Origin: Botrytis cinerea B05.10
Lineage: Eukaryota; Ascomycota; Leotiomycetes; Helotiales; Sclerotiniaceae
Length of the DNA: 64,000 bases
Reading direction: 5' to 3'
NCBI RefSeq assembly: GCF_000143535.2
Contig: NC_037318.1
Span: 62,001 to 126,000, forward strand
Of this stretch, positions 23,395 to 50,428 are shown one piece after another (positions within the stretch are counted from its first letter, which is position 1; each line of letters starts with the position of its first letter). The translations under genes and the position numbers were made by a program. The notes beneath the pieces were generated by a model. It saw nothing but the letters and a program-made list of their open reading frames with translations, did no database searches and had not been told where the DNA came from.

Positions 23395-23465
23395 AGTTTC
23401 ATAGCTCAGTGCTAAAGCGAAGAATCGCAGTTCTTTTAGTCGACGATTCGATCCCGTCTGGAACC
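23395..23465 (+). pseudogene. Decayed tRNA-like sequence
   Basis: The 71 bases fold to tRNA layout: acceptor AGTTTCA/TGGAACC (one mismatch, one G-T), TA, D arm GCTC-AGTGCTA-AAGC (one mismatch), a 5+7+5 anticodon arm with loop TCGCAGT, a 5-base variable region, and T arm GACGA-TTCGATC-CCGTC (A-C mismatch at the last pair). The T loop and D arm are near consensus. Position 33 is C instead of T, and several stem pairs are broken, so it is probably non-functional. By position the anticodon would be GCA. The mismatches at acceptor pair 1, D stem and T stem could each come from one G-to-A change. Confidence 0.4.
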
Positions 23466-24064
23466 TTCATTTTTTGGTTTTTGGGGAGGGGGAGGGGGAG
23501 GGGGTTTTACCGCCAGACTTTGGAGAACATTTTTATTTTGACGAGGGGTGATGAAGTTGACATTTGGGCATTCGGAGGGGGAGGAGCGGATGAGGGGAAG
23601 GAGAAATGAAAGGGCCGGATGAGGGACGTTGTAGTTACGAACAAGGTAGGCAGGTATGTTTTTTGATCTTGGAATTTTATTGCCGGGCATCCATGCGTAT
23701 TGTAGTTCAATCCCATACTTCGTTCATCTTTGTGCGCCATCGAACTTCCTTCCCATTTCAAATTCTGAAGATGATTTATTATTTCTTCCTTGTTGAAAGT
23801 TCACGGCAGAATTGCAAAACGGGTAGGTGGGGAACCGCACAGAATGAATGATGATTTCGAAATCCTGAGTCTGAGACTTTAAGAATATGAGAATTGGTGT
23901 TTTGCTTTATTTATTTGTTGATCTATGATCTCTTATTTTAAATAGTGTAGATTTGTCATTTCTATAATGTCTTCATGCGCATGTGTGCATATACATCTAA
24001 TATTCTGGAACTTGTCACCAGTCCCGTTTACCCCTCTTCAAATCCACCACATCAACATCTATCC

Positions 24065-27397: not shown

Positions 27398-27873
27398 CTA
27401 GTTGCATCCACAACTCAAAAACCCACTAGCATGATAAAATCTTCCTCCATCCATAACACCCGTTCCAACACAAGTTCCCACACTCTGTACACCCTGCTGC
27501 GCGACTCCCAAGTCAAAAGTCTGAGTAATGTCACCGCTACAATCGGTGACTCCTTTCCAGATACTATAGGTGCAAGCTTTATCAGCCGGAAAAAGCATGA
27601 TGCCTTGAGTAAGGATATTGACGCAAGCGCCGGCGGTGATGTTTCCTGAGAAAACATTGATGCCGCATTGGGATGGAGATTGGTAACCTTGGTAGTAATC
27701 TAGTTTGGTGGAGAGGATGGAGCAGGTAGAGATTGGAGAGACAGAGGCAGGGACGGGCACTGGAGAAGCAAGGACGGCTGTGAGGAGAGTGAGGGGGAAA
27801 ATGGCCTGGAGATTGTTAATATGCATGTATTGAAGTGAGAAAAAGAAGGATGGAGACAAACTGTGAAGAGCAT
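27398..27873 (-). CDS. Small secreted protein with eight cysteines
   Basis: Preferred model: ATG at 27873, a 12-base first exon (27873-27862), a 56-base intron (27861-27806, gttt donor, ttaac branch, ctccag acceptor) and exon 27805-27398, giving 139 residues. The N-terminus is a strong signal peptide ending ...LTAVLAS. The mature part, about 120 residues, holds eight cysteines, the last two as CGC near the C-terminus, which suggests four disulfides. An unspliced start at 27826 (MHINNLQ...) is in frame and also gives a signal peptide, so the intron is not proven. I do not recognise a family. Size, secretion and cysteine content are those of candidate apoplastic effectors or of small hydrophobin-unrelated secreted proteins; function is unknown. 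Confidence 0.65.
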
Positions 27874-30409
27874 TTTGATTGGGTTTAGAGAAGGAGGTAG
27901 TTTGAGTTGGTTGTTTGTTTGGATGATAGTGTTATTGATGTTTGAGTTTGAGTCCGAGTTGTACTGTGTGGCAATTGCAATGGTGGCCGATTAAAATTGC
28001 ACTTGGATATGAAATGTAATTGTATGATGAGTGTAATCGAAAGCTCAAAGCATAAGAGCCAACACCAACATATATAGTTCTCACATCTTATCTCACCTCA
28101 TCTCACCTTCGGCCCTCAGCACCATTACCAAAACAAAATATCAAGCAACGTTGAATCAAGCATGAACTTTCGACCCACTATCTGTGAGTAATACGACATA
28201 ACATGATTATACAAGGACCTAGCCTTGTTCTTTACATACATTCTAGACGCCCCCTATACGCAACACAGTAAGATGCATGAATATGCAGTTCGTGTCTTCC
28301 CATTCTATACGATAGACTGACAGGTGAAAGCACGGGCCGATTGGAGCTCACGCTGTGAAGCACGAGAGCCTCGTATCATTAAAATATGTTCTCAACGATA
28401 TCAAGACCAGAAGGCGTTAAGAGGCGGGTTCCGAGATTGTGGTTAACTTGCACTGGCAATGACAGAATCAATTACATGATCATAATTCGTTTGAAATTTG
28501 AACATGTTTAATTGAGAGGGGTAAAGAGCAAGATGACGTAGGTATATTAGACCGAAGCCATACTATGTTGACCTCAAATTCCAGCTTGCATGTTGAACGC
28601 GGTGTGGAAATTTCCGGTCTACAATTGTCCATGGATTTTGATAAGCAATAGCGAATCAATTCCACGGGATTTGTTCGCACAGGCAATCAATTGAAGTAAT
28701 TCTGCAGATCAACATACCATGTTGAAGATTATCTTCAGCCCATGGACTCGGATTTGCGTAGCTGTGTCTCATTGATCCCTGGCAACATACCTCGTATTGA
28801 GTAAGGTATTTGACAGCATGGAAAAGTCTTTTCACATTTGATTATCTCATCATCGAACACTATCCGATAGGTTATTGGGATCGTATTGATGGACCTGCAT
28901 ACGTATAATGCTAGGAACTGAAAATGAAACGTAAGTGCATCTCAATCATACTCAATAAGTGTTCTGCAAATCCTGAAATATGATGTGTGTCCGACTTTGT
29001 TGTTCTAGAGCATAGCCTATCTACAATAGTGATAATAATGAATGCATGATAATAATGTGAAGGTGTGAAGGTGTGAGGGGTCTGTAAACGTGGCTGATGA
29101 TGACTGACTTAAGCGAATGTATCCTACCGGACTTTCAACACCGACCGACCTCGAGGTTACACCGTAAAACGTCCCGCGAAACGTTCGGATCTACAAGCTC
29201 CAGGATCCCCGTTCCGTAAGCGTTGAAGAAATACGAATAAACATATAAATAGAAGCAATCGGGAATGTCCCGTATTTACGAATAAATTCTTGAGAATCGA
29301 GAATGTTAGGAATACTTTCGTAACGTTGCTTGCGAGAACAATTCGTAAAGATAAATAGATAGTGCAGTAGGATGATAAAAATTCCAATGAGTGATAAGAG
29401 GAATAAACATTTCCATGTCGCTCAAAAACATCGTGTGTGTTCTTTGACATAATAGTAGATGGCGATAAAAATAGTTGATAGGGCTATTCAACTTGTTGAT
29501 TGATACAATAGTCTGCGCCGAGACTTTAGCTGCAGGAAGTTTTCCTATCGCGGTACGGGCCGTGCATTGCATCGCATATGGAATTGTTGAATCAATTGAT
29601 ATGTAATGTGTGGCAGACCACTCGGTCATATAAAACCGCCGAAATCAATATTGAAAATGAAAGATTTCAGAAAGATATCGTGTTGTTGTGTTGCCATGAA
29701 GACGTGGGATGATTGTTAAGCGACACAGACATCTCTGCATCTGAAGTGGGATATAGAATCCTCTCTTAGCTTGGAAGTCAAGATTCAAACATAAATATTT
29801 CAGCTCGTATGGTTCGTCAACGCAAGCAGCTAGAATAATAAACGACGAGAATGTTATCAGTGACGGTTGAAGTGTACCGGAATGAGTGCAGGGAACTGTG
29901 TTACCATGGTATTTGGTATCATGCTAGGAAGTTGTTACACCCTTCAAAACGCCACTCATAACACTTGATAGAAATTCAACTTACTTCTAGAATCCTTTTT
30001 GTCCGTGCGAAATATGAAGAATGAGATCAGACTTGCATAACATCATGTTGTGTGGGTGTTCAGTCATCGAGATTAGCAAACTAGATGTGAACTTCGATAG
30101 GAAGGTCTCCGAAAATAATCCAATGTATTAAGCGAATCCATTTGGATAATTCAGATGGCTGAATGTTGCAATGATTTGACTGTTTTGAAAATCCCCGTTG
30201 TTTAAATGGTCTTAATATCCCAGACGATCGGAATTCAGGAATAAAATGATTTTCAGCATCGGAATATAATCCAGACTATTGGAAACCCTGCATTATTCTG
30301 CATATTGTTGAACATTGAAAATGAATATATTGCATCGTGTCTCTGTAGTGATATCACTATGAACGCCAAACTCTTCGAAAAAATACATACTTCCAATCTT
30401 CGCGAACAA
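27874..30409. other. 2.5 kb gene-poor spacer
   Basis: No gene seen. Immediately above 27873 is the promoter of the secreted protein gene. Small direct repeats (gtgaaggt, near 29060-29080) occur. Frames such as 29157-29450 minus show no domain. The right end should be the 3' region of the RING gene. Confidence 0.45.
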
Positions 30410-32739
30410 TCATGCAGCTCTTCTAGCTGTTGTACTCATTAATGTAATTTTCTTGCCCTTTTTCTTCTTCCCTTGAGGTGGTGGTGGAGGTGTAGCACTT
30501 GAACTACTTTCTCCGTTCAAGGACGCCGCCTGAATTTGAGCAATCAATGCATCATTCTCTGCTTGAAGCTCTTGTTCCCAACCCGGTAGCCAACCATCAT
30601 CCGCATTACCATTGTACTGGGGATGAAGATCAGGCGAAGATGGTGTTACTAATGTTGTTCCCCAAACAGTTCTTGGCGCAGGAGGGCTCGTAGATGGTGA
30701 GGCTAATGCTCCGAAAGAAGAGCCTTGACGTGAAGTCCAAGGAGGAGATGCATCAACCGGGTCAACAGATGTTGATGTGAGCTCGGCGTAATCGATATCG
30801 GAATAGTTCGCTGGGGATATTTCGGGTTGCTTCTGCCTAGCCGTGGCCCAACGTGCATTATCTTCTGCCTTTTCAGCACGCTGCCTATCTTTCTCCTCTC
30901 GAACTTCCTTGTCTCTATTACGTTTTCTTCGTCGCTCAATATCCTCTTTGAATTGATTCAAGATCTCCGGTTGAACAACATCAGTCCAATTGCACTCTAA
31001 AAATCCTACTTCGCAACCAAAGGGCAAATGAGCTAAGTATTTGGTTCTTTTTCTCAATTCATCATCCATCACATGAGTGGATACACGCTCGACGCGAGGA
31101 AGTAATGTTGAAGGAAATGAGGCAAAACTTCCAAAAGCCGATTTGAGAATTCTGATATCGAGAGGAGCGAGATAATAATGAAGAAGAGCTTGATAAAACA
31201 GGTATGGGGCGTCTGAATGTCTCTCGTTTGATTGGGAATTCTTTGAGCGTAGTGGCCTGTCATTTTGTTGCGTGCTCCCTAGGTGGGATTGTGAAGGATC
31301 TGAGATCGGAACAGGATGGGACGAAGGTAGTGGTGGAGTAACTGTCGAATCTAATTGGAAAGGGACAGCCGATGGAGATAGCGTTGAGCTTTGTTGGACA
31401 TAGTACATCTCTGGAGAATTTTCATCGACAGTATTGAACTGTATGGGTTGCCTTTTGGGCTTCTTCTCGGTCGGCTGATTTGGTGGAGGTGGTGGCCCAC
31501 CAATACCTTTTACTTTCTCCTTCGCATCGTTTACAGAATTGACCGCTTTCCGAGTCCACTCGGGTTCTTCCCCAAACATCAATTCATCCTCATTCTCTTG
31601 TTGTTTCAATGCTTCGATTTCCAATCCAAATTGTTCCATCATATATTCCTCACTTCCTTTCATGATTCGAGCATAATCCGTAACCTCGGCAGCGAAATAC
31701 CATGGGATGTCTTCCGATTTATCGAGTACATCCGCACCATCTCTTGGCAGTGCCAAAGTGCTTCCAGGTTGTCGCATAACTAATCGTAATACAACATCTT
31801 CTCCTTCACGCGGGGCAGGCCCTTCTTGTCCAATATACCATCTAACGGGTCTCGTTTCTGAGCTATAGATAGTATCCCAACAGATTGGACATGCCTTCCA
31901 TCGAGCCTTTTTCTCTGGTAGAGGGTTTGTGTCATCGGTCGAGTGCATGTAGCGAATAAGACATGGCAAACAAAAAATATGTCCGCATTTCGCCATGCGA
32001 GGGGCTACAGGGTGCGAGAGACATATTGGACATGATGTGTCTTGTGATTCGGCGGATGCGAGAATTTGAAGAACATCATTCCAGTCCAGAGGCTGATCTG
32101 CGAACAGAGCTTGCTGCTTGTAATCTCCATTTGGCCTGACTATAAATCGGTAGTTTGCGTGAATATACCTCGCTTTATCACTAGAATGATGACCAGATCC
32201 AATTCCATATATATTCCCACGTCTTGTCCCTCTTGCGATCGTGTTTCGATAATCCTGTGGCCTGGGGGGAAGAGCAAAACTCATAAGATGTGTAATTGAT
32301 GTTTGTCCCCTTCGACTATTGGCATTTCTCATAGCCGCCTAGCAGTATTAGCACTACTGATTGTCTGTGAACTAGTTATGAAAGTGAAATATCCTAATCG
32401 TCTGCAATGAACTGATCTTTTGTATTGCACTAATTGCTTGCAATATGCCTGTGGGACAGGGATGCAAATGATGGGAACGTGAAGAAATGTACAACTTACG
32501 GATTCCGCCATAGCATCCTCATCCGCGAGCCTGGGTTTCTTGGAATTTCTATGTTGTTTTCGTTGACTTTGATTGTTTCTAGCAGCCGCAGATACGCCAC
32601 CGGATTGACTACCAGAGCGCCGTGTATTTGACTCGAAACTTGGAGATATGATTTGACTCTGCTGTTGTTGAGTAGGATTGTGCGCGGTATTGAGAGATTT
32701 TCCACCAGGCGATGACGCGCTTTGCTGAACGGGGTTCAT
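30410..32739 (-). CDS. RING finger E3 ubiquitin ligase, RNF10/Mag2 type
   Basis: Predicted 722-residue protein from exons 32739-32500 and 32338-30410. The first 80 residues are Gln/Ser-rich and basic. PRPQDYRNTIARGTRRG and KARYIHANYRFIVRP are typical of the RNF10/Mag2 family and lie just before the RING, as does DWNDVLQI. The RING (residues about 183-233) is C3HC4: CPICL, then KCGHIFCLPCL and finally CPIC. SEDIPWYFAAEVTDYARI is followed by charged and proline-rich regions and a lysine-rich C-terminus. Family knowledge: human RNF10 and yeast Mag2 ubiquitinate small-subunit ribosomal proteins (uS3, uS5) when initiation stalls or 18S rRNA is defective. It is therefore expected to act on ribosomes in the cytosol. 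It is divergent from a Ubp3/USP10-type deubiquitinase 1.24 kb away. Confidence 0.9.
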
Positions 32740-33979
32740 AGTTCAAAGTCTTTAAAATATAGAGACTTCTCAATGTTCCAATCCAGGCTTGATAATCAAA
32801 TGGACTCTCAGGCCGGGAGTTTGATTGGGCGTGTAAAGAGGGAAGTATCAGATGATATGATATGTCCTATGGCGACGTCTGGTTGCTTGACAGAGTTGTT
32901 GCACTTTTCAATGTTCTCGATCAGACCCGATTTGATAATCGTCGGTCCCTCGGATAAGACAATCAATCGCTCTTGATATATATGCGTGTGTAGCTATGGC
33001 TGAAAGTATGAAATACAAAGCTAAGGAGGAACGATTGAACACAAAGAATGAGATGGTAAAGATGGGTATGCTAATAGAATAAAGTAACTGTACTATGAAA
33101 CGCAAAACGATGCAGATGGTTGACTTGGGAGGAGATTTCAGGCGCCACAAGGACGTTGTTGCCAGAGGACGGGAAGAGTCACTCCAGATCACCACTGTAT
33201 GGCTTTATGAGGATGAGGGGCGATATGAAAGTTCACCAGTGGTTCGCTCCCTCAATGTTATCGGTAATCTTATAGGGAAAACGTTAGAGACATAAGACGT
33301 AATCGGATCGTTCGTCATACCTGCCAGTGCCTCCGAGCCCACCTGGTAGCTATGGGACTGTTGGGACCATGAAGAAGATGGCAGATGGACGAAGATATAT
33401 TTGCACTCGATTCACAGTATTGCATTAGCCAGGGACATTCTTAGATGCCGCGTCCATGTGCGCTTCCACCTCATATGCAACGGCGAATGCTTTACTTCTT
33501 ATCGATATGCTTCTAGCCAGGACACCAGGGGAGCCAGTTTAATTGTTCTAGGTCAAGAGTACATATCGCACAGCACGGCACGAGCACCCTCCGCATAGCT
33601 TTTTGGGGGCAAAAAGTCTTGGCAAGGCTTTCACTTTTTTGGCTCAGTCATCTTCTTTTTTGATCTCCATAATTTTGGAGGACTTCGGAAATCTACCTGC
33701 CCCAAAGCCAACATTATAACCCAACAACATATATTCCATAATAGTCATATCCAGAGCTCTATTTGTGCAGATTTATCTTGGAAGCTGCTGCCATCGCGCG
33801 CGTTTTAAATATAGAGATACCTTCTCTTTTTGTTAATGCGCTAGCACTTTGGAGAACATACTCAAGAGAGCTCCCCCCATCTAACGAAGAGCCAATATCA
33901 ATTTCGCGCGACAGCTCCTGCCAAACCAAACCATCCTGGACAAGGTAGGTTTGGAAAGAACAAACTCTAGCAAGCCGGC
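32740..33979. promoter_or_regulatory. Shared divergent promoter region of the RNF10-type and Ubp3-type genes
   Basis: The 1.24 kb between the two start codons must carry both promoters. No gene lies in it. A gtaggt...ctctag pair just before the ATG at 33980 (about 33944-33972) could be a 5' leader intron of the deubiquitinase gene. No specific factor site is claimed. Confidence 0.5.
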
Positions 33980-36773
33980 ATGATGAACGGTCGTCATCTG
34001 CCGGCAGGGCAAGGTATGCAACAAGACCTGGGAAGAAGGAGACCTTATGGTCATCAAGCTCAACCATATCCACCGGCGGCACCTCTGTACAATGCGTACA
34101 TGCACCCGTACAACGCGAATTATTACCATCCTCAACCATTGCCTCCTCAGTATTACAATAATGGCTTGACTCAACAATATAACCCATATCAACACTATGG
34201 TCGTTCGCCTCCGCCAATGATGACGCATTATACTCACCCACCTCCACCTCCACTTCAACCCCAAGCACCACCTTTCGTTCGACCTCAGCCATCTCCTGCT
34301 ATTGCTGCTTCTCACCCACCAGTAATTGCGTCCTCTTACCAGCCAGCTCCTGCGCCTCCACTGCCTCAAACTCCCTCGAGCTTCTCAACCCAATCGTCCA
34401 ACACCCTTTCTGCAGGACCTCTCACGCCTCCAACTCCACAAATACAGCCTGTTGCTCAGTCTCCGCCTCCAGCTCCCAAACACTATATACCTTTTCAGGC
34501 ACCTGTATGTTACACTCTTAAAACACATTACTCAATTGCTGATATCAAACTAGTTGCCTTGGATATCCCCCAACACTACTGCACCCTGGCCGACCAGACG
34601 GCGCCGGAAAAGGAAGCAGAGTCCAGAGTTGTCTATGAATCCCGTGGAGCTTCCAAGTCTAGACAAGGATGTTGATACTGAGTCGAAGAAGGGCGTAGAG
34701 ATGTCGGAGCCATCGTCAGAGCCAAAGCCGAGCCCTGAAGAAGCTTCAGAGCCTACACCTGAAACACCTACTACTACTCAAGGTCCATCAGAAGACACTG
34801 AATCTACAGTCCCAACTACTCCATCTTCTACAAAACCTTCGTCTCTACTTGCAGGTGGAGAAGTAACTCCCGTAGCTACAAAATCCCAGCGAGCTACTGT
34901 GCCTGCAGTCCCCGCCATCCCTGCCATACGTGCCATTCCAAAGTCTCAACCCAAAAGCATGCCATCGACAAATTCTCAAAATACCAATGGTGAAGTTGTA
35001 GCTGAGGCAGAATTGACCAAGTCTGAAGTGACTAATGAGAATGAAGCCAATGACCCTACTACTGAGGAAGTTGAGGCAACACCTCCCCCTCCCAAAGCGT
35101 GGGCTACACCAAGAGCTTGGACTGGTCTCTTTGGTTCATCTGGCGCTCCTACCGCTCCTACCACTGTCAATGGTGGACAGAATGGATCCTCTGAGATTGG
35201 CAAAAGTAATTCGGAATCACTAGCTGAAGCATTGCGCTCATTCAAGGCCGAAGCCAAGGACTCCAAAATATCATTTCTTGAGCCTCGAGGTCTAGTGAAC
35301 ACTGGTAACATGTGCTATATGAATTCTGTTTTACAAGTTCTCGTTTTCTGTACCCCTTTCTATGACTTTCTTGATCAAGTCAGCAAGAAAGCAGCGCATA
35401 GCTTCAAAAGTCAAACACCTTTAATTGATGCAATGTAAGTACGAACAATGAATTTCGTGTAATTGCTACTAACATCTTACAAGGATTATGTTTATGCGGG
35501 AGTTTTCAGTTATTGATTCTGCAAAATCAGTTGAGCAACTCAAAATGAGACTTAAAGATGGGGAACTTGAGCAATATGGAGATTCTTTCACGCCGGATTT
35601 CGTCTACGATGTTATGCGACGTTTACCGAGATTTGTCACAATGCAGGTTAGTTTAAATGTATTATTTGAGTTTGTATTTACTAATATATGCCATAGAGGG
35701 GACACCAACAAGACGCGGAAGAATTCCTTGGCTTTTTGCTTGAAGGGCTTCATGATGAATGTGTACATGTCATGAAGTCAAGTGAATCGAGTAAAAATTC
35801 GGCTGATACCACACCCATGAACGTACCTTCGTCTCCTATCAGCGATACTGCGAGTCGACGTGGGTCTGTTGATGATGTATGGCAACAGGTTGGACCTAAA
35901 CAAAAAGCTGCCATTACAAGATCTTCTGGAACTATACTTACTGGCTCTCCAGTCACTAAAATCTTTGGTGGTAGCTTGAGATCCGAATTGCGTGTACCAG
36001 GCTTGAAAGATTCCATTACTCTTGAGCCATATCAGCCACTCCAACTGGATATCGGTTCCCCGGATATTCATAACATCGTTGATGCCTTGAGAGGCCTGAC
36101 ACATTCAGAGGTCCTTCATGGCGATTTCAAGTCTCCAAAGGGTCCCAACGTAACCGCGACAAAGCAAGTATTCATCGAGACGGTACCCCCTGTACTCATC
36201 TTGCACTTGAAGCGTTTCCAATACGACAACACCGGCGGCACACAAAAGATTTGGAAGAAGGTTGAGTATCCTTTGGAACTCGAATTACCAAAGGAAGTCT
36301 TTCCAAGAACTAGGCGTAGTGTTTTTGCCCATGATGGCTATCCAAAGTATCGCCTGATTGGCGTTGTCTATCACCACGGTAAGAATGCCAGCGGTGGACA
36401 CTATACTGTAGACGTTAGGAGACAAGATGGGAAGGAGTGGATCAGACTTGACGATACTGTTATTAAGCGTGTAAGGAGTGAAGATGTAGCTGAAGGAGGA
36501 AGTGAAGAAGATCCAAAAGTTTTGGCTGCTGCTTTAGAGGCCCACAAGAAGGATAGTTCATCGTCGGGAAACATCTTTGCCTCAATCGGAGAAGAAAATG
36601 GAGAAGCTGAGGAGGACGGATGGAAACAAGCCAGTGGATCTGGAAAGAAATGGTCAAGTGTAGTAAATGGCGCTTCCACACCAAAGTCCAAACCTGCCAC
36701 TGGATATGCGGCTGGTAAATCCTCACTTATGGATAACAAGGTCGCATATCTCTTGTTTTATCAAAAAGTATGA
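33980..36773 (+). CDS. Ubiquitin carboxyl-terminal hydrolase, Ubp3/USP10 type
   Basis: Predicted 881-residue cysteine protease from exons 33980-34504, 34554-35434, 35484-35646 and 35697-36773. The N-terminal 170 residues are Pro/Gln/Tyr-rich and disordered. LPWISPNTTAPWPTRRRRKR, created at the first splice junction, is a motif before the catalytic region in fungal Ubp3 proteins. A long acidic, Ser/Thr/Pro-rich segment follows. The USP domain starts at about residue 418: cysteine box GLVNTGNMCYMNSVLQVL (nucleophile Cys429), QRGHQQDAEEFLGFLL, and histidine box YRLIGVVYHHGKNASGGHYT (His758) with WIRLDDT. The last part of the domain carries an acidic insertion and ends KVAYLLFYQKV. Ubp3, with Bre5, and USP10, with G3BP, deubiquitinate 40S ribosomal proteins and trafficking factors. 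A Bre5/G3BP partner gene is not in the window. Confidence 0.92.
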
Positions 36774-38034
36774 GGGTCTGATTGGTGTAATGATAGGGCT
36801 GGGCACGATGGATAGGGAATTGAAGAGGACGGCGATGATCGATGGAGGAGGCCGGACAGGTCGCTGAAAGGGATGTCATAATTGATTCTCAAAATGATGA
36901 ATATTACGAGAAAATGAGATGAAAGGCCGAGAAGAGGGATGGTTCGTGCTGAAGATGCGGTCCCTTTCGAAAGTTAGGTATCCGTGTTTCGCTATTCAGC
37001 AAGGAAATTTTGGATGGGCGGTTGACCTAGTCTTATATTAGGGTTAACAAAAGATGCATTGCAGCTTTCTTGTACATCACTTATTCGGACAACTTCTGAA
37101 TTTTGGCATCATTTCTATGGCATGAGCGGTTGGCGCATGTTTAGGGAGGGAATTGGCGCGCAAAAAATAGTATATGTTACGAGGAAGTTCGATGTATAAT
37201 ATCTAATGGTTATTCGCAACCGACCATAGCAAATAAAAAATTAGCGATGAATAAGGAGTCACATAATGCATAATGTTGGAAACTGTTTTCTGCTGGACTT
37301 GTTAGCTAGGACGCATAGGGTGAAACGCAACTCGGAATATGTTGAGCTGCCTACCTACCTAGGTATAAAAATTGACAAAACATCATACGTCAGGTTGGTG
37401 ATACAATGCCATCGACTATTCCTTTTATGTTTGAATCGATGTGTTGGTTGAGGCAGATAGCCCCGCAACTATTTGTTGTCACTATTACCTAGACTAGACA
37501 ACACTTAATACACCTAATACATGTAATAGCTACATGATGGTATATTTAATACTACCTGCCTGACTAAACGCTATTATCGATATCGTATTCGTAACTTAAG
37601 GTTAATAGGTAGCTGGTACACCCAGATGCACATTGTTATCCTTGCCCCTTTTTTAAACTCATGTAAAACGTAATTTGTCAATTAAAAACCCCATCTTTTA
37701 CTAGGGGTTTTACAATTCTCGAAGGCTTGGTTTTAAGGAGTGACAGGGGATAAGTGAAGATCAATCCGACCCAATGTGTGACTTCCGAGTGGCTCGACTG
37801 AAATGGGAAACGGGAACTAGTAAACAAATATTAATTTTAAATAATTCCCAATGTAAAATGGAGTCCGATTTGATTCTCATTATTTTGTTGACACTTTTTC
37901 TTGCACGCGTATGAAATCATGATCTTTGAGCTTCTATTATAGCACTTTCCTTACAAGCGCTTCATTTAAAATTGTATGTAGTGAATTAGTGGTTTATACT
38001 CGTCCCAACGATCTTTCCGTTCCGAAATTACACA
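36774..38034. other. Spacer between the deubiquitinase and ERG4
   Basis: No gene. AT-rich, with short repeated taatacacctaatacatg-like text near 37500-37530. It holds the 3' region of the upstream gene and the ERG4 promoter; no sterol-regulatory element could be assigned with confidence. Confidence 0.45.
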
Positions 38035-39909
38035 ATGTCCGAAGGACGCGAAAGATATTCTTTGCGGCAGACGCCAAAGTAAGTACCATTGCTATCTTTT
38101 CACTTCCATTTCCATCAGAGAGAGAAATCTGACCATTTATATAGAAAAACGGAACGTGCTGGTTTCGTCGAGACTCCACGAATTCGTCGCCAGAGAAAGT
38201 CACAATTCTCAGAAGACGCAGACGATTCTTCCTCCGCAACAGATAATCCGCCATCCAGGATGAGATCCTCAAGTCGAAAAGTCAATATGGTCGAGACAGC
38301 AACAGCGAATGATCATGTCAGTAATGGCGCCGCAATCAATGGCTTTACTTCCGCATTGAATGACCCCAACACGATCGAATCGTTGAAGAGTGGAAGCGCA
38401 AATATCAAGAGCGAGACCGAGGAGAAGGCAGTCAACGGGAAACCAACAAAGGTTACAAATGATCCAAAGATTGATGCTTCTGGCCATTTTGATTTTGGTG
38501 GCTCTTTCGGCGTTAGTGCTATGATGATTGGATTCCCTTGTCTCATGTGGTATATGTGGATTGGAGCAACATACTATGATGGAAAATTCCCTACACCGGA
38601 ACCAGGCCAAGAATTCCTCGATTTTGTCAAACATATGGGTGATCTCGTCTACACAGGGGCATACCCAAGTCTTCGTGCTTGGAAAATCTACTGGGTTTTC
38701 TTTGTCTTTGAGGGTATCTTGTACTGCCTTATGCCAGGAGTTTGGGGTTATGGTAAACCGCTTCCTCATGAGGGAGGTAAGCAATTACCATATTACTGCT
38801 CAGGAATTTGGTCTTTCTATTTCACCATTATCACCGGGGCTGTTTTGCACTACCTCGACATTTTCAAAATTTATACTCTCCTAGACGAGTTTGGGCCAAT
38901 TATGTCAGTAGCCATTTGCTCTGGATTCTTGGTCTCAATTGTTGCTTATTTGTCGGCTTTGGCACGCGGAGCTCAACACCGAATGACAGGCTACCCAATT
39001 TATGACTTCTTCATGGGAGCCGAGTTGAATCCAAGAATGTTCGGCATCTTGGATTTCAAAATGTTCTTCGAAGTTCGCCTACCTTGGTTCATTCTTTTGG
39101 GTCTTTCCTGTGCCGCTGCTGCGAGGCAATATGAACAATATGGTTATGTATCAGGTGAAGTCGGATTCTTGATTATGGCTCACTTTTTGTATGCAAATGC
39201 ATGCGCTAAAGGAGAAGAACTAATCATAACAACCTGGTATGTATATCCCTGTACACACCTCCATTCAGTCTACTAACTCTTTTAGGGATATGTACTATGA
39301 GAAATGGGGTTTCATGTTGATTTTCTGGAACCTCGCCGGAGTTCCTCTCAGTTACTGCCACTGCACCATTTATTTGGCCAACCACCCACCATCTGAATAC
39401 TCATGGAACAAGTATTTCCTTTTCTTCTTATACACATCGTACCTGTTCGTATACTGGGTTTGGGATACCACCAACAGCCAAAAGAATAGATTTAGATCTC
39501 GTGAGCGTGGAACCGTCACAGATCGTAAAGCATTCCCTCAATTGCCATGGAAGGAGGTTATGAACCCACGTGTCATCAAAACCAAAACCGGTGACTCAAT
39601 TTTGGCCGATGGCTGGTACGGAAAAGCTCGCAAGATTCATTACACTTGCGATTTCTTCTTCGCTTTCTGCTGGGGACTTATTACTGGCTTCAAGAGTCCA
39701 TTCCCTTGGTTCTATTGTGTCTTCTTTGCCGGTATGATCTCTCATCGTGCATATAGAGATATCCAAAAGTGTCGGGAGAGATATGGAGAGGCTTGGGAAG
39801 AGTACGAAAGACTGGTTCCATATCTGTTCATTCCAGTAAGTTCCGCCTTATCTCTATCAATTTGGTCGACTCTAGTTCGTTGCTAATTCAACCAAAGGGC
39901 ATCTTTTAA
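38035..39909 (+). CDS. ERG4: Delta(24(24(1)))-sterol reductase (C-24(28) sterol reductase)
   Basis: Predicted 565-residue ER membrane enzyme that reduces the C-24(28) double bond in the last step of ergosterol synthesis, using NADPH. Exons: 38035-38078, 38145-39236, 39286-39835 and a terminal exon 39898-39909 coding GIF and the stop. The N-terminal 120 residues are hydrophilic and low in conservation. The membrane core begins [23 protein letters not shown]4/ERG24 signatures are clear: [15 protein letters not shown] and [20 protein letters not shown], followed by [19 protein letters not shown] near the end. The W codon split TG|G at intron 2 restores [13 protein letters not shown]. The last intron is inferred because homologues end with a short FIP-x-x-F tail; reading through the donor instead gives an unconserved tail. 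Start at 38035 is the only upstream ATG that joins in frame. Confidence 0.93.
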
Positions 39910-40617
39910 ATGGTTATATACCATATATATAAAAAAAACCGAATGATTTCGGTCGCAGTCATCTGTCTAGATGGATGATTGGAAGTGCCCATGCTAGCAT
40001 TAGATCATAAAATAAGAACATGGGTAGCTCGTATAGTAGGCGTAGTATTAAACTTCTCTTGTACATAGGTTATTGATATGACTTTTAATGCCCAATTGTG
40101 CTCGAATAATATATCCAGAATTGATTCCATCAAACTTAGTTGAATCTACATAAATAGAAAGATGACATACGTGTCTGATTTTGTATTGCTAGCGAAGCTA
40201 GAAACCGCATGTGATTTTAGATCTGAATTATGGATAGAAATGTTAGAGGACTTGACTTCAAAACCGAATACAAGATGCCATTGTCTCTGAATATGACGAC
40301 GGTCAGTAGAGCATGCAAATTCTTCACAGCTGTACGATGTACGGCTGCTACTTTTTCATGCAGCCTTATGTATGGTAAAGGCTAATGAGGCTGAAAGGGA
40401 GCTCGGCGTCGCCAACAATAAATACCTTATCAATCTAGCTATCAAAGCTCATTTAGAGAACAATTCCATTGACCCTTAAAGACCACACACGCAATTTCTC
40501 AATTTCAATCAACGCGAGTTTTCGACTATCGCGTCCTCCTCTTTGATATCTTCTCTCTCTCTTTCTTCAACAAACTCCACCTCAATTCTTTACCATCAAC
40601 AAATATTCAAAGTCATC
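39910..40617. other. Spacer and SPT16 promoter/leader
   Basis: No gene. A CT-rich stretch at 40532-40570 just before the SPT16 start looks like the pyrimidine-rich leader common upstream of highly expressed fungal housekeeping genes. Confidence 0.5.
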
Positions 40618-43600
40618 ATGGTGGATATCAGAATTGACAAGAATTTGTTTCAGGAGCGATTATCACACTTTATATCATCATGGAAAGCTGATAAGAGAGG
40701 CGGCGACGCGGTTTTCAATGGCGCAAATAGTATCCTGGTATTAATGGGGAAGACGGAGGATGTGGCAAGCTTTCAAAAAAATAATGCGATTCATGTGAGT
40801 TCAAATATCTGCGAAAAGTTTCACAAGAAAGTACAATGGAGAGAAGGTTGAGTGCTGATGAAGAAATAGTTTTGGCTATTAGGCTACGAGTTTCCTGCGA
40901 CGCTCTTCCTGTTCACAGTCGACACTTTATACATTGTGACGACGGCAAAGAAAGGTTCGTGAATAGTCATTCTATATGCGCCAACAAATTGGAAGCTAAC
41001 ATTGGAATAGCGAAACATTTGGAGCCTTTGAAAGGTGGAAAGATTCCTCTCGAGGTCTTGGTTAGGGGCAAAGATGCAGCAGCCAACGAGAAGCTTTTCA
41101 CAAAAATTGCAGATGTCATTAATTCATCAGGGGTGAGTCACTAATACTATCATTCTGCGCAGAAAGAATAGACTAACAAATTTCTGCTTATAGAAGAAAG
41201 TCGGAATTCTACCAAAAGATACATCAAGTGGCCCTTTTATCGATGAGTGGAAGAAAATCTATACCGAAATCAAGGATGTGGAAGAAGTAGATATTGCGCC
41301 AGCTTTATCTGCTGCAGCATTGGCCGTAAAAGATGAGAACGAATTGGTAAGGCACTCATTACGAGGGGGAAGAACTGGTTGATGCTAATAAACTCTACAG
41401 CGCGCTATGCGAAATTCTTCAAAAGCATGTACTGCACTCATGAACCCATATTTTGTCGAGGAAATGTCAGGCATTTTGGATGAAGAGAAAAAAGTCAAAC
41501 ATAGCGCCCTGGCCAACAAAGTGGATGGCAAATTGGACGATGTCAAATTCTGGACTTCCGTCGAGCTTCCTAATAAACAGAGGATGCCAAATGACTTCGA
41601 TTCGTCACAATTGGACTGGACCCATGGACCTATCATACAAAGTGGTGGAAAATACGATTTGAAGATGAGTGCTCAAGTCGATGATGAGTTATTACATGCT
41701 GGTGTCATCATTTGTTCTATGGGTCTTCGATACAAAACCTACTGCTCCTTAATTGGCCGAACTTATCTTGTCGATCCAAACAAATCTCAGGAGAGCAACT
41801 ACAAATTCTTATTGCAGGTTCACAACCTTGTTATGAAGGAAATTCGCGATGGCGCTCATGTCAAGGATATTTACGCCAAAGCTTTAGCCCTCATCAGAAC
41901 CAAGAAGCCAGAGTTAGAGAAGCATTTCTTGAAGAATGTTGGAGCTGGAATCGGTATCGAAACAAGGGACCCTACTTTACTCCTGAATGCCAAAAGCACT
42001 CGCAGCTTAAAGGACGGAATGACCCTTTGTGTCACTACAGGATTCAATGATATCGAGAACAAAGATCCTCAAGACAAGAAGAGCAAAATTTACTCTTTGG
42101 TATTGTCAGATACTGTTCGTGTCACTCAAGCGGAACCTGTTATTTTCACAGGTGATGCCCCCTCGGAACTTGATGCGACCTCATTTTTTTTCAAGGATGA
42201 AGAAGATGAGCCTGCACCAGAACCAAAAGCTACCAAGGCAAAGAAGGATTCGAGCGTTGGGGCTGTTGCAGCCAAAAATATCACCAAGACAAAACTCCGA
42301 GGTGAACGATCAACTCAGGTTGATGAAGGTGCCGAAGCCAGACGGCGTGAGCATCAAAAAGAGCTCGCAAAAAGAAAACAAGCCGAAGGTCTTGCAAGGT
42401 TCGCTGAAGCTACTGGCGACCAAAATGGTGTTGCCGTGAAGAAATTCAAGCGATTTGAATCTTACAAGCGTGAGAATCAATTCCCTCCAAAGATCAGAGA
42501 TCTCGCTATTGTTATGGACGCAAAAAACTCAACTGTTGTTTTACCCATTATGGGCCGTCCAGTACCTTTCCATATCCAAACTATCAAGAATGCTAGTAAG
42601 AGTGACGAGGGTGAATTCTCATACCTTCGAATCAATTTCTTATCTCCTGGTCAAGGTGTTGGTAGAAAGGACGATCAACCATTCGAAGATGTTTCAGCAC
42701 ACTTTGTTAGAAGTTTGACATTCAGATCTCATGATGGAGATAGATTTCAAGACATTGCCAATCAAATCGGTAACATGAAAAAAGATGCTGTTAAGCGTGA
42801 ACAAGAGAAGAAAGATATGGAAGATGTTGTTGAGCAGGACAAGTTGGTTGAAATTCGAAGTAAGTTCGCAACTTGTAGCCAGTCTTTTTTCTTCTTCTAT
42901 ATCTTACTGACATAATCAGATCGTCGTCCAATTGTCATGGACAACGTTTTCATTCGTCCAGCTATGGATGGTAAACGTGTACCCGGAAAGGTTGAAATTC
43001 ACCAAAACGGTCTTCGATACCAATCCCCTCTAAATCTTCAACACCGAGTTGATATCCTTTTCAGTAATGTCAAGCATCTTTTCTTCCAACCTTGTGATCA
43101 TGAATTGATTGTTATCATTCATGTGCATCTAAAGGATCCAATTTTGATTGGTAAAAAGAAGACCAAGGATGTTCAATTCTATCGCGAAGCTACTGATATT
43201 CAATTTGATGAAACTGGAAACAGAAAGCGAAAGTATAGATATGGAGATGAGGAAGAATTTGAAGCAGAACAAGAAGAACGAAGACGTCGTGCCGATCTTG
43301 ATCGACAATTCAAAGCATTTGCTGAGAAGATCGCTGACGCTGGTAAGAATGAGAACGTTGATGTCGACGTACCTTTCCGTGAACTTGGGTTCGGTGGTGT
43401 ACCAAATAGGTCCAGCGTTTTCTGTCAACCTTCCACAGATTGTTTAGTTCAGCTCACTGAACCTCCTTTTATGGTCATCACTCTTGAGGATATCGAAATT
43501 GCTCATCTCGAACGTGTTCAATTCGGACTCAAGAACTTCGATATGGTCTTTGTCTTTAAGGATTTCCACCGTGCTCCTTACCATATTAACACCATCCCTG

Positions 43601-44019
43601 TCGAATCACTCGAGAATGTAAAGGAATGGCTAGATTCCGTTAACATTCCATTTTCCGAAGGTCCACTCAATTTGAATTGGCCAACGATCATGAAGACTGT
43701 AACAGCCGACCCTCATGGATTCTTTGAGGATGGTGGATGGGGTTTCTTGGCAACGGAATCAGATGATGAAGGTGGTGATGATGAAGACGAGGAATCCGCT
43801 TTTGAAATGAGTGACGATGAAATGGCTGCTACGGAGGAAAGTTCGGATGAAGATAGTGATTTTGATAGTAATGCAAGTGAGGATGAAGGAGAAGAGGATA
43901 GTGATGAACAAAGTGAGGGAGAGGATTGGGATGAATTGGAGAAGAAGGCCAAGAGAAAGGACATGGAAAGTGGATTGGAGGATGAAGAAGAAGCACCCAA
44001 GAAAAAGAGAAAACATTAA
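40618..44019 (+). CDS. SPT16: FACT complex subunit SPT16
   Basis: Predicted 1031-residue histone chaperone, nuclear, partner of Pob3. Exons: 40618-40794, 40870-40954, 41011-41132, 41194-41346, 41401-42859 and 42920-44019. The N-terminal domain (about 1-170) reads [16 protein letters not shown], then [15 protein letters not shown] in exon 2. A catalytically dead aminopeptidase-like domain (about 180-450) includes [18 protein letters not shown] and [14 protein letters not shown]. The middle domain begins at [20 protein letters not shown] and includes [18 protein letters not shown] and [20 protein letters not shown]. The C-terminus is a long acidic Glu/Asp/Ser tail that ends in a basic KKKRKH. 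Length is close to other fungal Spt16 proteins. FACT loosens and rebuilds nucleosomes during transcription and replication. The gene converges with kinesin-3. Confidence 0.96.
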
Positions 44020-44827: not shown

Positions 44828-47800
44828 TTAATCCGCCAGATAATCCTCTCGATCCACATCCACATCCACCTCCGCATCTACATCATCGCTATCTCCACTC
44901 CCATCATCTCTCCTCCCTCTACTATTATTCCCACTTCCATTGCCAGCTCTGCCCCCACCACCAGAGAAATAGCCCTGATCGATTTTCCAAATCCACTCTA
45001 CTTTTTCCCTCTCGCTCCTCGCTCTAAACAACCACGTGTTATTTGTTCCGTAGACTGCAAATACCGTTTCTTCTATTTCTCTTCTACTCTCTCCATTACC
45101 ATTGCCATTCGCATTGCCGTTTCCTCTCCCGCCATATCCCATGATCCCCATGCCCATTCCACTTCCGCTCCTTCCTCGCCCTCCATACCCATAGATACCT
45201 CCTATGCCGTTATTACTCCAACTTTGCTGTGCACCCGCACTCGCAGGACTACTATTCCGACTTGCATTTCCACTCCCGCCCTGTCTTTCATTTCTCAACA
45301 ATTTTGCAATCTCAGGACTATGGTCCACCCTTGCATTTCTCAATCCAACCACATTTACCTCCTCCCCACTATTGGGGCCCGCGACCGCATGAATATGCAG
45401 ATACGGTCGTCTGAGCTCCACGAATCTGCGTATCCATTTCGTACTATCTGCGGAAGGAACTAAGAGCATCCCCGCTTTGAGCACACTGGGATTCTTTTTG
45501 ATCTGAGAAATAGTGGCGAGATGCTGAGGTATGGATGGTTTAGGATGAGCGTGTGGAATCGGCGAGGTTTGTCGAGATCGAGATGTTTGGCGGGAGTTGG
45601 CGGTGGATGGGTGGAGTGAATTTGAGAAATTTGATGGACGGGGTGAGTTTGAGCGGGAAGTATTGGATGTGAAAGAGGTTGTGTGGAAGAGAGATGGAGC
45701 GGGTGAACCGTTGATAGGCGGTTCAATATTAGTCGGTGTAAGAATGGTTGTTGATGGATCGCGGCAGAGATGGAAGTATTTAGTAAACTTTTGAAGAAGA
45801 GCGGTTTGATGTGGGTTGTATTCGGATTGATTCTGGGGCTTTTCTTGTTCTTGGCTTGGGTCATGAGGGATAGAACCAGTGTCAATGGCAGACTCGATCT
45901 TTTCCGTGATTTCATTATTGAATTGACCGTCTCGATGTATACCTAGAGCATTTCCATCCACAGATGATGGGAGTGCCTCATCTATCGATAATGGGGATGG
46001 AAAATTTTCCGTTGTAGCTGGCGGACTGACAGGAAGTGGTATATCGGCTGGATCTAGTTCAACAACCTGTGGAATAGAAGGAGCTGGTATTGTTATTGGT
46101 ACTGGCGATGATGCGATACGTCTCAATAAAGGCTGAGCAGCATCGATTTCCGCCAATCTTTGTCTTTTCCTCCTTGCCGAAATGAAATCCTTAACCAAAC
46201 TAATACCTCTCGGTGTCCAGTTCGTAAGAGCTTCTTCTCCTTTAACATAATCTTCCGATGTATTCATTCTCCACAAATCACCCGCTCTCTTCACGGCCAC
46301 TGGCCGAACAGAGATAGAGTAAATACTAGTCATAGAATGAACAATCCGTACACTTTGAAATAATGATGCAAACATCGATGTAGAACGAACATAATTACGC
46401 GACATGATTTGAGAGCAAACATCCATATTGAAAGTCATTAGGCGAGACAATTTCTCAGATTTCACGTCCCATGAAAGGGACATTTGAACTTTGTATTTAT
46501 CTGCCGTTACTCGATCAAGAAGTAAAGATTCGTGGGCACTCGAGTCCCATTTTCCGACGATGCAAACATTGCTTGTGCCGTTTGCATTTGCTTTAACAAT
46601 AGGCTTGGAAAGTAATTTGAGGTAAAGGGGAGGAGTCGAAGGGGAGCTGAGATCTGGACTTTTCCCAATATGATCAACGAGTTGAATTCGTCCTACGCGT
46701 AAACCAGTGACATCCGACCAAGGCAAAGCATCACCGGAATTATGCGTCAAGGTAACAGCAATTCTACGTTGTAGACCTTGATGAAGTTGGAATGTTCCTT
46801 GATCAAGCTCACTTGTTTGAATAACTTCAACAGCTGGATAATCGCCACTTTCGGCTAACTCTAGTATTTGAACTTTAGCAAATACATCATGTTTCTCTTC
46901 AGAATAAAACTGCGACTCTGCTATACGAGCACCTTTCCGCTTCTTCTTGGGTTGGGGAATGTTGTCTCGCATATCGTCCCAACTTAAAAGTTTATCTAAA
47001 TGCATTGATGAAACTTTGGCAAAAATGGCCACACGAAGAGAAACATCTGTAGGACCAAACATTGGGACGCTCATACTATGAACGCTTTCGAATCGGATTG
47101 GACCTTCATCAAAATCTTTAATCATCTGAGTCGTTGTAACACCACCTTCATTCGAAGCGGGAGGTATGAACAATTGACCGTGGACTTCTGTCCCTTCCCG
47201 CTCAGCGAACCCTATCATTTCATGCATAACAACATTAAACTTCAAGGTGTTCGAAGGGGCTTTTGCTGAAGATGGTTCCAACGAGAGCTTGATGATACCA
47301 ATAGCATGCATTGTAAATGGTGATAGAACATCAAGAGTAAAGTCTTGAACTCGACTCTCGAAAACTGCTGATAGAGGGACATCAACATCTCCAACATGTG
47401 TATACTGTGGCATACAAGTTTCCATAAAAGGATTGTCGAGTCGAAAATGTTGAAGGTATTCCGGTCGATCAAGATATTGATGCATTTGCCTCATCTTCCG
47501 GATACGATCCTGAAGTTTATCAAGACTCCATAGATGAGCCACATTATTCCTGTAGTCTATTACCCGTACGCCGATGCAAGGTTTTGTTGCATCTTCGAGA
47601 TGAAAATCATCTCCCTCTATATCATTAAGAACCATATCATAAGAAGAACATAAAGCGTGCCCTATGTCAACAACAGCAAATTGAAAAACAACATTCTCAT
47701 CCATTTCGTGACTCATTATTTGGGCTTCCTTCAAAATTGCTGCATTCTGAAATACAGCTTCAGCCATTCGAACATATCTTCGCCCTTGCCAATGTTTTGC

Positions 47801-50428
47801 AACTTTCTCGGCAACCACAATTTCTTTCTCTGATAGTGGAGGTGGTCCATCTGGCCCCGATTTTACCGGGGACAACTCTTGTAACTTTTCTTCATATTCT
47901 TTTCGTTGAACCTCCAATTGTTTGAGCATCTCCTCCTTAACTTCTCTGAGCGTCTCTTCCATTCTCACTTTTTCCTTTTTGATTTCCTCAACCTCGACAT
48001 TTGAGGTTTTGGCTATCTCGAGTTGTTCCTGGAATTCTTCTCTTTGCTTTTCTAACTGGACTTGCATTTCCTCTTTAACTTCACGCATTCTGTCTTCGAC
48101 TTCTCCTTGCTTGGGTGTCGATGGCATTGTCAGTGCAGTGTCCAAAGAGAAGTTATCCAAAGTGCCGTTTGAAAGATACTTTTCTCGCATAGGATAAGAG
48201 GTTACCGAGTCTAGATCATCTTCCAAGTTTGCAGTTGCACGTTCAGCCCTTGCTCTTTGAACATCCTCAAATAAAACGTTGAGCTCCTCATCGGACAGAC
48301 CTGCAATCTTCTGATCGGTTCCTAAAATAGCACCAGCTGCCTCACGCCTTGCTAATGACCAATCAGAAAGACCTCGCCCAGGCACTGGGGAATCTGCTCG
48401 ACTACTACCATCGAAATCGAGGTCGGAGATAGCTTTGCTGAATGTTCGATCATGGGCTGGCCGAGGGGTAGATGAAGGCGAGAATTTGTCCCAATCCTTG
48501 AAATTTTCTAATTGGTTAGCAGTTACAGAATGCCGCAGAAGGCTCTGCTCTGCGCGTTCCGCTCGAGCCTCCGTTGGATTATTGAACCTAAAGATATGAA
48601 AGTCGCCAAGAATAACTCTGAAACCACTCCTCAGCCGAGTCGGCTTTTCAACTCTTTGCCCATTAACCATCACTGCTGCCCCTTCAGTTGGTGTAAGAGT
48701 CACCACATTATCGACATTCTCAAAAGTGCAATGCTCATGTAATATACGAGTTCCATTAAGTCGAATTTCCGCCGCGTGGGCTGCATTTGTATCGACATTT
48801 CCAACCGAGGTTGACCCAGGTTTGAGGTTGTACACAAGACATTCTGCTAGCAGTGGATCGTCGGACAAATTCACAAGATGAGGCATCTTCTTTGGCGTAT
48901 GTAATCCAACAAATCCCTTCTCGATACTGATACCCAATTCTTCCAGGGCCGCTTCTCGCTCTTTGTGAATTTCCTCAGTTTTTTGTAATTTCTCCTCCCA
49001 AGTCTGATTAAGATCTGAGTATAGTTTCTCGCTCTGATTGAGTTGTTCGGTGATTTCCGCTTTCGATACCTTCTTCACAGCACCGTCTGATGAAACAATT
49101 GTGACCATTTGCTTCTCCAAAGGTGTACCTTCTGCATAAATCTCATCTGCCGGGCCTCCCCCTCCTCCGCCACCCCCACCACCTGTCAATTTACCTCGCA
49201 ATTGAGCCAATTCTTCTTTCAACTCACGGATCATACGAGCATTCGCATCCTCGTTTACAACGGCGTGATTCTTGATTCTCTTCGCACTATCAGCATATCG
49301 CAAGGTACTTAAAGTTTCATCGAAATTTATATCTGCAGGACTAATAGCTGCAATCATAGCTGTCATACTATTTCCTCCCAGGGAATCTTTCAGAAGCCAA
49401 GTCAACACACTGTCTCGGTAAGGGACTTGATTCCCCTTTCCCACTTTCTTCTTCTTTCCTTCCGATAAGTCGGCCAGCGCAGCAATAACTCTACCAAGCG
49501 TCGATAGAGATCTATTAATCTCCGCACCTTCTTTCAATCGAGCTCCAGTTGCACCCGTAGAATTTGCTCGCTCGGAACCAGCCAAATCGACCAAACTAAT
49601 TTTCGCAACCTTTTCCATTGCCATCTTTGTTTCAACATCCAATCGTTTCTGAGTCAAAGTCAAAGTGAAGACAGCATGACTTCTACTAGAAGTTTCGTTC
49701 ATGTTCGTAGCTGCAACGGTACGGGCTTTATTGCCCTCATCCATCAAGTTTTCAATCTCTTGAAAGCTACTCACAACCAATTTCGCCAAGTCTTCCACAT
49801 ATGGTCCCGTCGAGGGATGTTCTCGAACTTTCAGGTTGCCTTTTGTCGATGGGTTTAGAAGATCTCGTACTCGTTCGTTGTAAATTTCCAGATATGATAC
49901 CTCGACTGTGCATTTCAGATGTTTGTCCTGTTGTAATTCTCCTATCCTCTCAAACATGTCCTGACAAATTTTTGGAATGACACCAGCATCTTTTCCATAT
50001 CCCATCATCGAGTAAGATTTTCCCGAACCCGTCTGACCATATGCGAAGATACAATTGTTGTAACCCTGAAAGGCATTATCCAAAAGAGGCTTTCCCAAAT
50101 CCGTATGGAGGTTGTCTTGTCCTGCGTAACTCGGATCATTTTTGTCAAAGGACCAGTATGAACGATCGAATGCGAAAACCTTCTGGCCCGTATCAGCCTT
50201 TCCACCCTTTGCATCTCTTGATTTCGCCTCATGCCCTTCTGGTGGGGTGATGACCGTTTGCGCATCTTTCATTTGCACTATACATTTTGCTCCGCGATCG
50301 ATCTCTATCCCGAGGTATCAGTCCTGACACAAAAATGGGGTTTGACAACATATCCACCGCATACCTCTACTGTTGAACGGCCTACACCGCACAACGACTT
50401 TAATATTTCCACCACCACCGGGCGCCAT
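44828..50428 (-). CDS. uncA: Kinesin-3 motor (UncA/KIF1A/Unc-104 type)
   Basis: Predicted 1846-residue plus-end motor for endosome and vesicle transport. Exon 1 (50428-50365) encodes MAPGGGGNIKVVVRCRPFNS; exon 2 (50304-44828) encodes the rest without a visible intron. Motor domain: P-loop GQTGSGKS (residues 111-118), switch I NMNETSSRSHAVF, switch II LVDLAGSERANSTGA, and a lysine-rich KKKKVGKG. A neck/coiled segment and a run of ten glycines follow. An FHA domain (LKPGSTSVGN, HEHCTFENVDNVVTLTP) lies near residues 510-600, then coiled coils with repeated VKEEM-QLE text. The KIF1B/DUF3694-like middle follows, and a C-terminal PH domain ending RARSEREKVEWIWKID. Order and length agree with the kinesin-3 family. 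The PH domain is interrupted by a low-complexity Gly/Asn/Ser insertion of about 65 residues. Confidence 0.95.

What the first reader, a model, noticed from the sequence alone, without database searches (positions are those of the whole stretch)
30410..36773. Opposing ribosome-ubiquitin enzymes (RNF10/Mag2-type E3 and Ubp3/USP10-type deubiquitinase) are head-to-head neighbours
Seen: an RNF10/Mag2-type RING protein on the minus strand and a Ubp3/USP10-type protease on the plus strand share a 1.24 kb divergent promoter region. Known: RNF10 and Mag2 attach ubiquitin to 40S proteins such as uS3 and uS5, while USP10 removes it; Ubp3 acts in ribosome turnover. Inference: the shared region may keep writer and eraser of the same mark in balance. 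I am not aware of this pairing being described as a conserved fungal gene pair, but I could not search.
Basis: partly seen in the sequence, partly recalled or inferred. Interest (0 to 1): 0.75.

Follow-up and report, generated by a model that had tools for sequence, protein, structure and literature searches.

The report
Ancient neighbours: ribosome ubiquitin writer, eraser
In a Botrytis (grey-mould) fungus, the gene for an enzyme that probably tags ribosomes with ubiquitin lies next to the gene for one that probably removes such tags, and the two seem to stay neighbours in a range of other fungi and to lie close together in fission yeast, so the linkage looks old and is worth testing for joint control.

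Summary
An intact RING protein gene (722 aa, minus) and an intact USP gene (881 aa, plus) are head-to-head, 1,240 bp between start codons, in a Botrytis genome. The pair is not species-specific: in 20 of 20 named species found in both (capped) homologue lists, both genes sit on contigs of identical length. Of 13 with usable locus tags, 12 pairs are consecutive and one is two apart, over seven classes. Fission yeast names also place the orthologues close together (SPBP8B7.21, P8B7.23).

Two results weaken the proposed mechanism. A control with the next gene, ERG4, shows that it is linked to the pair too (14 of 19 and 11 of 14 species), so a block is conserved, not the writer-eraser pair alone. 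The fission yeast names imply one strand and a gene between, so a shared divergent promoter is probably not the ancient feature. SPT16, also in this window, is SPBP8B7.19 in fission yeast.

Orientation elsewhere, co-expression and activity were not testable; Sordariomycete and Eurotiomycete pairs were not reached. Best reading: an old linkage block with a cohesive writer-eraser pair; co-regulation plausible, unproven.

The parts
30410..32338 (-). RNF10/Mag2-type RING protein, exon 2 (with stop codon)
   Evidence: spliced translation; Pfam RING; homologues
32339..32499 (-). intron of the RING gene (161 nt, GT-AG; a 245-nt alternative also keeps the frame)
   Evidence: choice supported
32500..32739 (-). 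RING gene, exon 1 (start codon at 32739)
32740..33979 (.). divergent intergenic region, 1,240 bp, which must hold both promoters and 5' untranslated regions; longest ATG ORF wholly inside is 67 aa; no Rfam match at gathering score
33980..34504 (+). Ubp3/USP10-type protease, exon 1
34554..35434 (+). Ubp3/USP10-type protease, exon 2 (contains the catalytic Cys box)
35484..35646 (+). Ubp3/USP10-type protease, exon 3
35697..36773 (+). Ubp3/USP10-type protease, exon 4 (His and Asp boxes, stop codon)
38035..39909 (+). ERG4-type sterol reductase (565 aa, three introns; end approximate), next gene; used as the synteny control and found linked to the pair in other species
41392..44019 (+). SPT16 (FACT subunit), at least two exons, ends approximate; one match in the genome; its S. 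pombe orthologue is SPBP8B7.19
   Evidence: Pfam; one copy

Best explanation
The two genes are an old, cohesive neighbour pair inside a small conserved block (ERG4, UBP3, RNF10, with SPT16 next in this genome). The RING protein probably adds single ubiquitins to uS3 and uS5 on stalled 40S subunits, and the USP probably removes ubiquitin from ribosomal proteins, so that marked subunits are rescued or turned over. The pair most likely stays together because both genes answer to the same growth and translation inputs in one open chromatin stretch, from separate core promoters in the 1.24-kb gap, and not because one indivisible bidirectional promoter sets their ratio. Inferred: enzymatic roles, joint regulation and the cause of the conservation.
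For: Depth: S. pombe ubp3 is SPBP8B7.21, spt16 is SPBP8B7.19, and the RING homologue is labelled P8B7.23 in three records. Of the S. pombe neighbours tried, families ATG8, ERD2, HECT and NOP2-type matched only other contigs of this genome. The pair as the cohesive unit: in Sarea the tags run ERG4 1564, RNF10 1565, UBP3 1566, whereas in the window UBP3 faces ERG4. The uS3 of this genome has a lysine in the tail context IIEPKEE, where yeast Mag2 modifies K212 (the yeast sequence context is recalled).
Against: ERG4, with no role in ribosome ubiquitination that I know of, shares the contig length with UBP3 in 14 of 19 species and with RNF10 in 11 of 14, so the pair's function is not needed to explain local conservation. 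No expression data. Orientation elsewhere unknown. Seven of the 20 species rest on contig length alone, for contigs of 78 kb to 2.6 Mb. The species are related and come from lists capped at 120. S. pombe closeness is read from gene names, not sequence. Yeast Ubp3 is reported as not required for turnover of mature 40S on starvation (PMC8122580 passage).
Confidence: 0.45

Rival explanations
1. Neutral relic. The block is a leftover of ancestral ascomycete gene order in a stretch with few breakpoints; the writer-eraser match is a coincidence.
For: ERG4 and, here, SPT16 share the block. A fission yeast study of 11 blocks with 90 genes found that Pezizomycotina shared more adjacent orthologues with fission yeasts than the other species did, P. 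murina excepted, possibly as remnants of an old filamentous gene order (PMC8537764, section 3.5 read).
Against: The other S. pombe neighbour families tried matched only other contigs, while this pair has stayed. Pair linkage is 20 of 20, above that of ERG4, although the ERG4 comparison includes Sordariales that the pair comparison lacks; in the seven species with all three genes listed ERG4 is linked in 7 of 7.
Confidence: 0.32
2. Strict bidirectional promoter. The 1.24-kb region is one regulatory unit that fixes the writer to eraser ratio.
For: Head-to-head arrangement in the window. Order relative to ERG4 differs between species, as expected if the pair inverts as a unit. A Fusarium paper describes bidirectional promoters as about 1,000 bp long (start of the abstract of PMC7012866, listing).
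Against: S. pombe names without the suffix c put both genes on one strand with a gene number between (naming rule recalled). The gap is long enough for two promoters. Mollisiaceae sp. has one tag number between the genes.
Confidence: 0.13
3. Linkage is kept by an essential neighbour such as SPT16 or by a shared chromatin domain, and the ubiquitin pair is a passenger.
For: SPT16 has one match in the genome, the stretch from the RING gene to SPT16 is 13.6 kb (30410-44019), and spt16 is in the same P8B7 name series in S. pombe.
Against: SPT16 linkage was seen only in this window and by S. pombe name; in other species it was not tested.
Confidence: 0.1

Closest known systems
RNF10 (human) / Mag2 (budding yeast), E3 ligases that monoubiquitinate uS3 at K214/K212 (passages of PMC11604940)
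   Same: one RING in a long protein; homologues labelled with the S. pombe name P8B7.23; uS3 of this genome has a lysine in the tail motif IIEPKEE
   Different: no RNF10 or Mag2 sequence was compared; activity untested
USP10 (human) / Ubp3 (budding yeast), ribosome-linked deubiquitinases (passages of PMC7037965; PMC8122580; PMC11604940)
   Same: single USP domain with intact catalytic motifs after a long low-complexity N-terminal part; sources call some homologues USP10 or Ubp3
   Different: yeast Ubp3 also acts on 60S and is reported not to be required for turnover of mature 40S on starvation, so writer and eraser need not share one mark in fungi
Conserved adjacent pairs of co-regulated genes in fungi (PMC3500266, abstract and passages seen)
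   Same: two functionally related translation-linked genes that stay neighbours in distant fungi
   Different: the passages seen treat mainly ribosomal protein and ribosome biogenesis genes; UBP3, MAG2 and ubiquitin do not occur in the main text; co-expression of this pair is untested

Membership tests
RNF10/Mag2 E3 ligase | a C3HC4 RING domain | tested here: met
   PF00097 at 183-233, 30.8 bits against a cut-off of 21
RNF10/Mag2 E3 ligase | groups with RNF10/Mag2 in a tree rather than with other RING proteins | not tested
   no Mag2 or RNF10 sequence on hand; the assignment rests on source names P8B7.23 and on recall that this is the S. pombe RNF10 homologue; solved structures listed were other RING proteins
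RNF10/Mag2 E3 ligase | monoubiquitinates uS3 at the K212/K214 site | not testable with these tools
   a lysine in the matching context is present in this genome's uS3 (yeast context recalled); activity needs an experiment
USP10/Ubp3 deubiquitinase | USP catalytic domain with Cys, His and Asp boxes | tested here: met
   PF00443 at 420-789; C429, H758, D775 and D776 are invariant in all 14 aligned sequences, query included
USP10/Ubp3 deubiquitinase | block WxxVG[PR][KR]...TR before IFGG (recalled as typical of the clade, not from a call) | tested here: met
   in 116 of 120 relatives and 14 of 14 of the alignment; in this genome only in the window gene among the fetched loci, which hold 8 of the 20 UCH matches
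USP10/Ubp3 deubiquitinase | groups with Ubp3/USP10 in a tree | not tested
   no reference sequence on hand; the solved structures listed were other USPs (60 of 92 listed, 60 of 61)
Conserved adjacent gene pair | neighbours in distant species | tested here: met
Bidirectional promoter pair | head-to-head orientation kept across species | tested here: inconclusive
   head-to-head in the window; tags give order but no strand; S. pombe names suggest one strand
Bidirectional promoter pair | correlated expression | not testable with these tools
   no expression data

The most novel reading that the evidence does not exclude
A writer and an eraser of ubiquitin on the ribosome have been held together since early ascomycetes, in filamentous ones as a divergent unit that inverts as a whole within its block, because their expression ratio sets how long stalled 40S subunits stay marked.
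Probability: 0.17. Interest if true: 0.75.

Novelty: new member of a known kind. Interest (0 to 1): 0.5.

Why it matters
Ribosome ubiquitination decides whether stalled subunits are rescued or destroyed, and how writer and eraser levels are matched is open as far as I know. A linkage seen in several classes of ascomycetes but absent in budding yeast (MAG2 and UBP3 are on different chromosomes there, recalled) gives a natural comparison: one can ask, lineage by lineage, whether linkage goes with co-expression. If the linkage turns out to be a relic, the block is still a useful marker of ancestral ascomycete gene order.

Tried and rejected
Direct synteny from DNA failed. Scans of viral contigs with each protein and with the USP alignment, and of genome contigs with the RING alignment, gave pattern matches but no confirmed relative.

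The idea that the whole S. pombe P8B7 stretch is kept was tested and dropped: ATG8, ERD2, HECT and NOP2-type families matched only other contigs. The S. pombe numbers .20c (NOP2).22 (ERD2) and .24c (ATG8) are recalled.27 (mug30, HUL4-type) is from a paper.

The intergenic region was searched for ORFs, RNA families and repeats. Only small ORFs, two short two-copy repeats and one imperfect inverted repeat came up, which may be chance. The bacterial promoter scan does not apply to a fungus. NCBIfam named neither protein (RING exon 2 and USP exon 4 were given). Ten paper searches found no paper on this pair (open-licence PMC only).

Rows dropped before the count: 40 of 120 and 17 of 120, all unnamed metagenome rows; 88 of 120, unnamed or of species in neither other list. 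The five ERG4 mismatches with UBP3 (Diplocarpon coronariae, Diplogelasinospora, Humicola, Parachaetomium, Staphylotrichum) and three with RNF10 (Cryomyces, Diplocarpon rosae, Sclerophora) are kept in the counts, although the two Diplocarpon and Cryomyces may compare different assemblies. No Sclerotiniaceae protein is in the 120 rows, which is unexplained.
Full report
WHAT IS THERE. The window is contig 9, positions 62001-126000, of a genome of 42,630,066 bases in 18 contigs. The RING protein's best listed relatives are Botrytis (97% to B. tulipae; 94% and 90% to two B. cinerea gene models of 712 and 680 aa). The size and contig number fit B. cinerea as I recall them. On the minus strand a two-exon gene encodes a 722-aa RING protein. 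On the plus strand a four-exon gene encodes an 881-aa ubiquitin-specific protease with intact catalytic motifs. Start codons are 1,240 bp apart. Other acceptors keep the frames too (one for the RING gene, three for the protease); the chosen forms match relatives best. Searches of the own genome return only the RING protein's own exons, and for the protease its own exons and three weak matches of 29-35% identity.

FAMILY. The RING protein is labelled P8B7.23, an S. pombe gene name, in three listed records (B. cinerea, Lachnellula suecica, Alternaria). The protease is labelled USP10 or Ubp3 in several. The block WxxVG[PR][KR] followed by TR, which I recall as typical of this clade, is in 14 of 14 aligned sequences and 116 of 120 listed relatives, and in this genome only in the window gene among the fetched loci, which hold 8 of 20 UCH matches. 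No tree with yeast or human references could be built. In the literature Mag2 monoubiquitinates uS3 at K212, human RNF10 is its homologue acting at K214 and also on uS5, and USP10 rescues ubiquitinated 40S subunits (passages of PMC11604940). Ubp3 is given as USP10 in mammals (passage of PMC7037965). Yeast Ubp3 acts in 60S ribophagy and is reported not to be required for turnover of mature 40S on starvation (passage of PMC8122580), which tells against a simple one-mark writer-eraser logic in fungi. The uS3 of this genome has a lysine in the tail context IIEPKEE.

IS THE PAIR CONSERVED? The named rows (80 for the RING protein, 103 for the protease) share 20 species. In all 20 the two genes are on contigs of identical length, which I take as the same contig. 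Thirteen have usable tags on both sides: twelve are consecutive and one (Mollisiaceae sp.) is two apart. The tag-adjacent species fall in Leotiomycetes, Lecanoromycetes, Candelariomycetes, Sareomycetes, Coniocybomycetes, Xylobotryomycetes and Geoglossomycetes, plus two of uncertain class (the classes of Mollisiaceae, Sclerotinia, Candelina, Xylographa, Lambiella and Psora are recalled). The other seven rest on contig length alone: Cadophora 78 kb, Lasallia 184 kb, Amylocarpus 245 kb, Pycnora 463 kb, Xylona 1.4 Mb, Saccharata 2.3 Mb and Hyphodiscus 2.6 Mb. The last three are weak evidence of closeness, and Saccharata is the only Dothideomycete. Sclerotinia borealis adds little, since large synteny blocks between S. 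sclerotiorum and B. cinerea are reported (PMC3158057, passages). The species are related and are not 20 independent events. Tags give no strand.

DEPTH. S. pombe ubp3 is SPBP8B7.21 (PMC3032702, passages) and spt16 is SPBP8B7.19 (PMC3034197, passage). With the label P8B7.23 for the RING protein, three genes of this window fall within five S. pombe gene numbers; in the window they span 30410-44019. As a rough sum, with about 5,100 S. pombe genes (recalled), a given gene lies within two places of another by chance in about 4 of 5,100 cases. The missing suffix c in these names would put them on one strand (naming rule recalled), with one number between ubp3 and the RING gene. Families of other genes of that S. 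pombe stretch match elsewhere here: ATG8 on contig 2, ERD2 on 2 and 5, HECT on 3, 4, 13 and 14, NOP2-type on 6, 7, 10 and 16 (the S. pombe numbers of ATG8, ERD2 and NOP2 are recalled).

The last protein search went to the next gene, ERG4. In the seven species where all three genes are listed, all seven share it. Four of the five mismatches with UBP3 are Sordariales (class recalled), and no Sordariales in the comparison match; Pleurostoma, another Sordariomycete, does match, on a 2.3-Mb contig. In Sarea the tag order is ERG4, RNF10, UBP3, and in Hymenoscyphus ERG4 is next to RNF10. In the window and in Coleophoma ERG4 is next to UBP3; in Rhynchosporium and Sarcosagium it is two numbers from RNF10, as it would be with UBP3 between; in Scytalidium it is three from UBP3. 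An inversion of the pair as one unit would explain the two orders, but a move of ERG4 would too. So a block is conserved, and the pair is at most its most cohesive part.

BACKGROUND RATE. Two Pezizales that have lost overall synteny still keep many microsyntenic pairs, more than either of the comparisons with other ascomycetes (PMC3778014, synteny section read; the numbers are in a figure that I could not see). Pezizomycotina shared more adjacent orthologues with fission yeasts than other species did, P. murina excepted, in a study of 90 genes (PMC8537764, section 3.5 read). Adjacent placement of co-regulated translation genes is known in fungi (PMC3500266, abstract and passages). The kind of thing is therefore known. 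This particular pair was not found described in ten paper searches, which cover open-licence papers only.

VERDICT. The proposed mechanism, a shared promoter that balances writer and eraser, is not established and is weakened by ERG4 and by the fission yeast names. Selection for common regulation and neutral retention remain open against each other; strand-resolved synteny with matched control pairs, and co-expression, would decide.

Noticed in passing
window 38035-39909: ERG4-type sterol reductase linked to the pair in many species; no Sclerotiniaceae protein appears among its 120 listed relatives, although they do for both partner genes.
   Followed up: partly
window 41392-44019: SPT16 (FACT subunit), one match in the genome, near the pair here and in the same P8B7 name series in S. 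pombe.
   Followed up: partly
window 27401-27890, minus strand: Small protein that by eye looks secreted and cysteine-containing (no signal-peptide tool run), no Pfam match, on the RNF10 side.
   Followed up: no
window 8098-10530, plus strand: One open frame with a fungal rhodopsin domain followed by a major facilitator domain: a fusion or two genes read through.
   Followed up: no
window 61758-62546, minus strand: DNase of the NucA/NucB family (PF14040), a family first known from bacteria (recalled).
   Followed up: no
window 23395-23466: Marginal tRNA match (29.9 bits against a cut-off of 29) not confirmed by ARAGORN.
   Followed up: yes
window 44831-50317, minus strand: Kinesin with KIF1-type domains in one open frame of 1,829 aa.
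   Followed up: no
window 32751-32765 and 33803-33817: A 15-nt near-repeat lies near both ends of the intergenic region (93% alike); may be chance.
   Followed up: no
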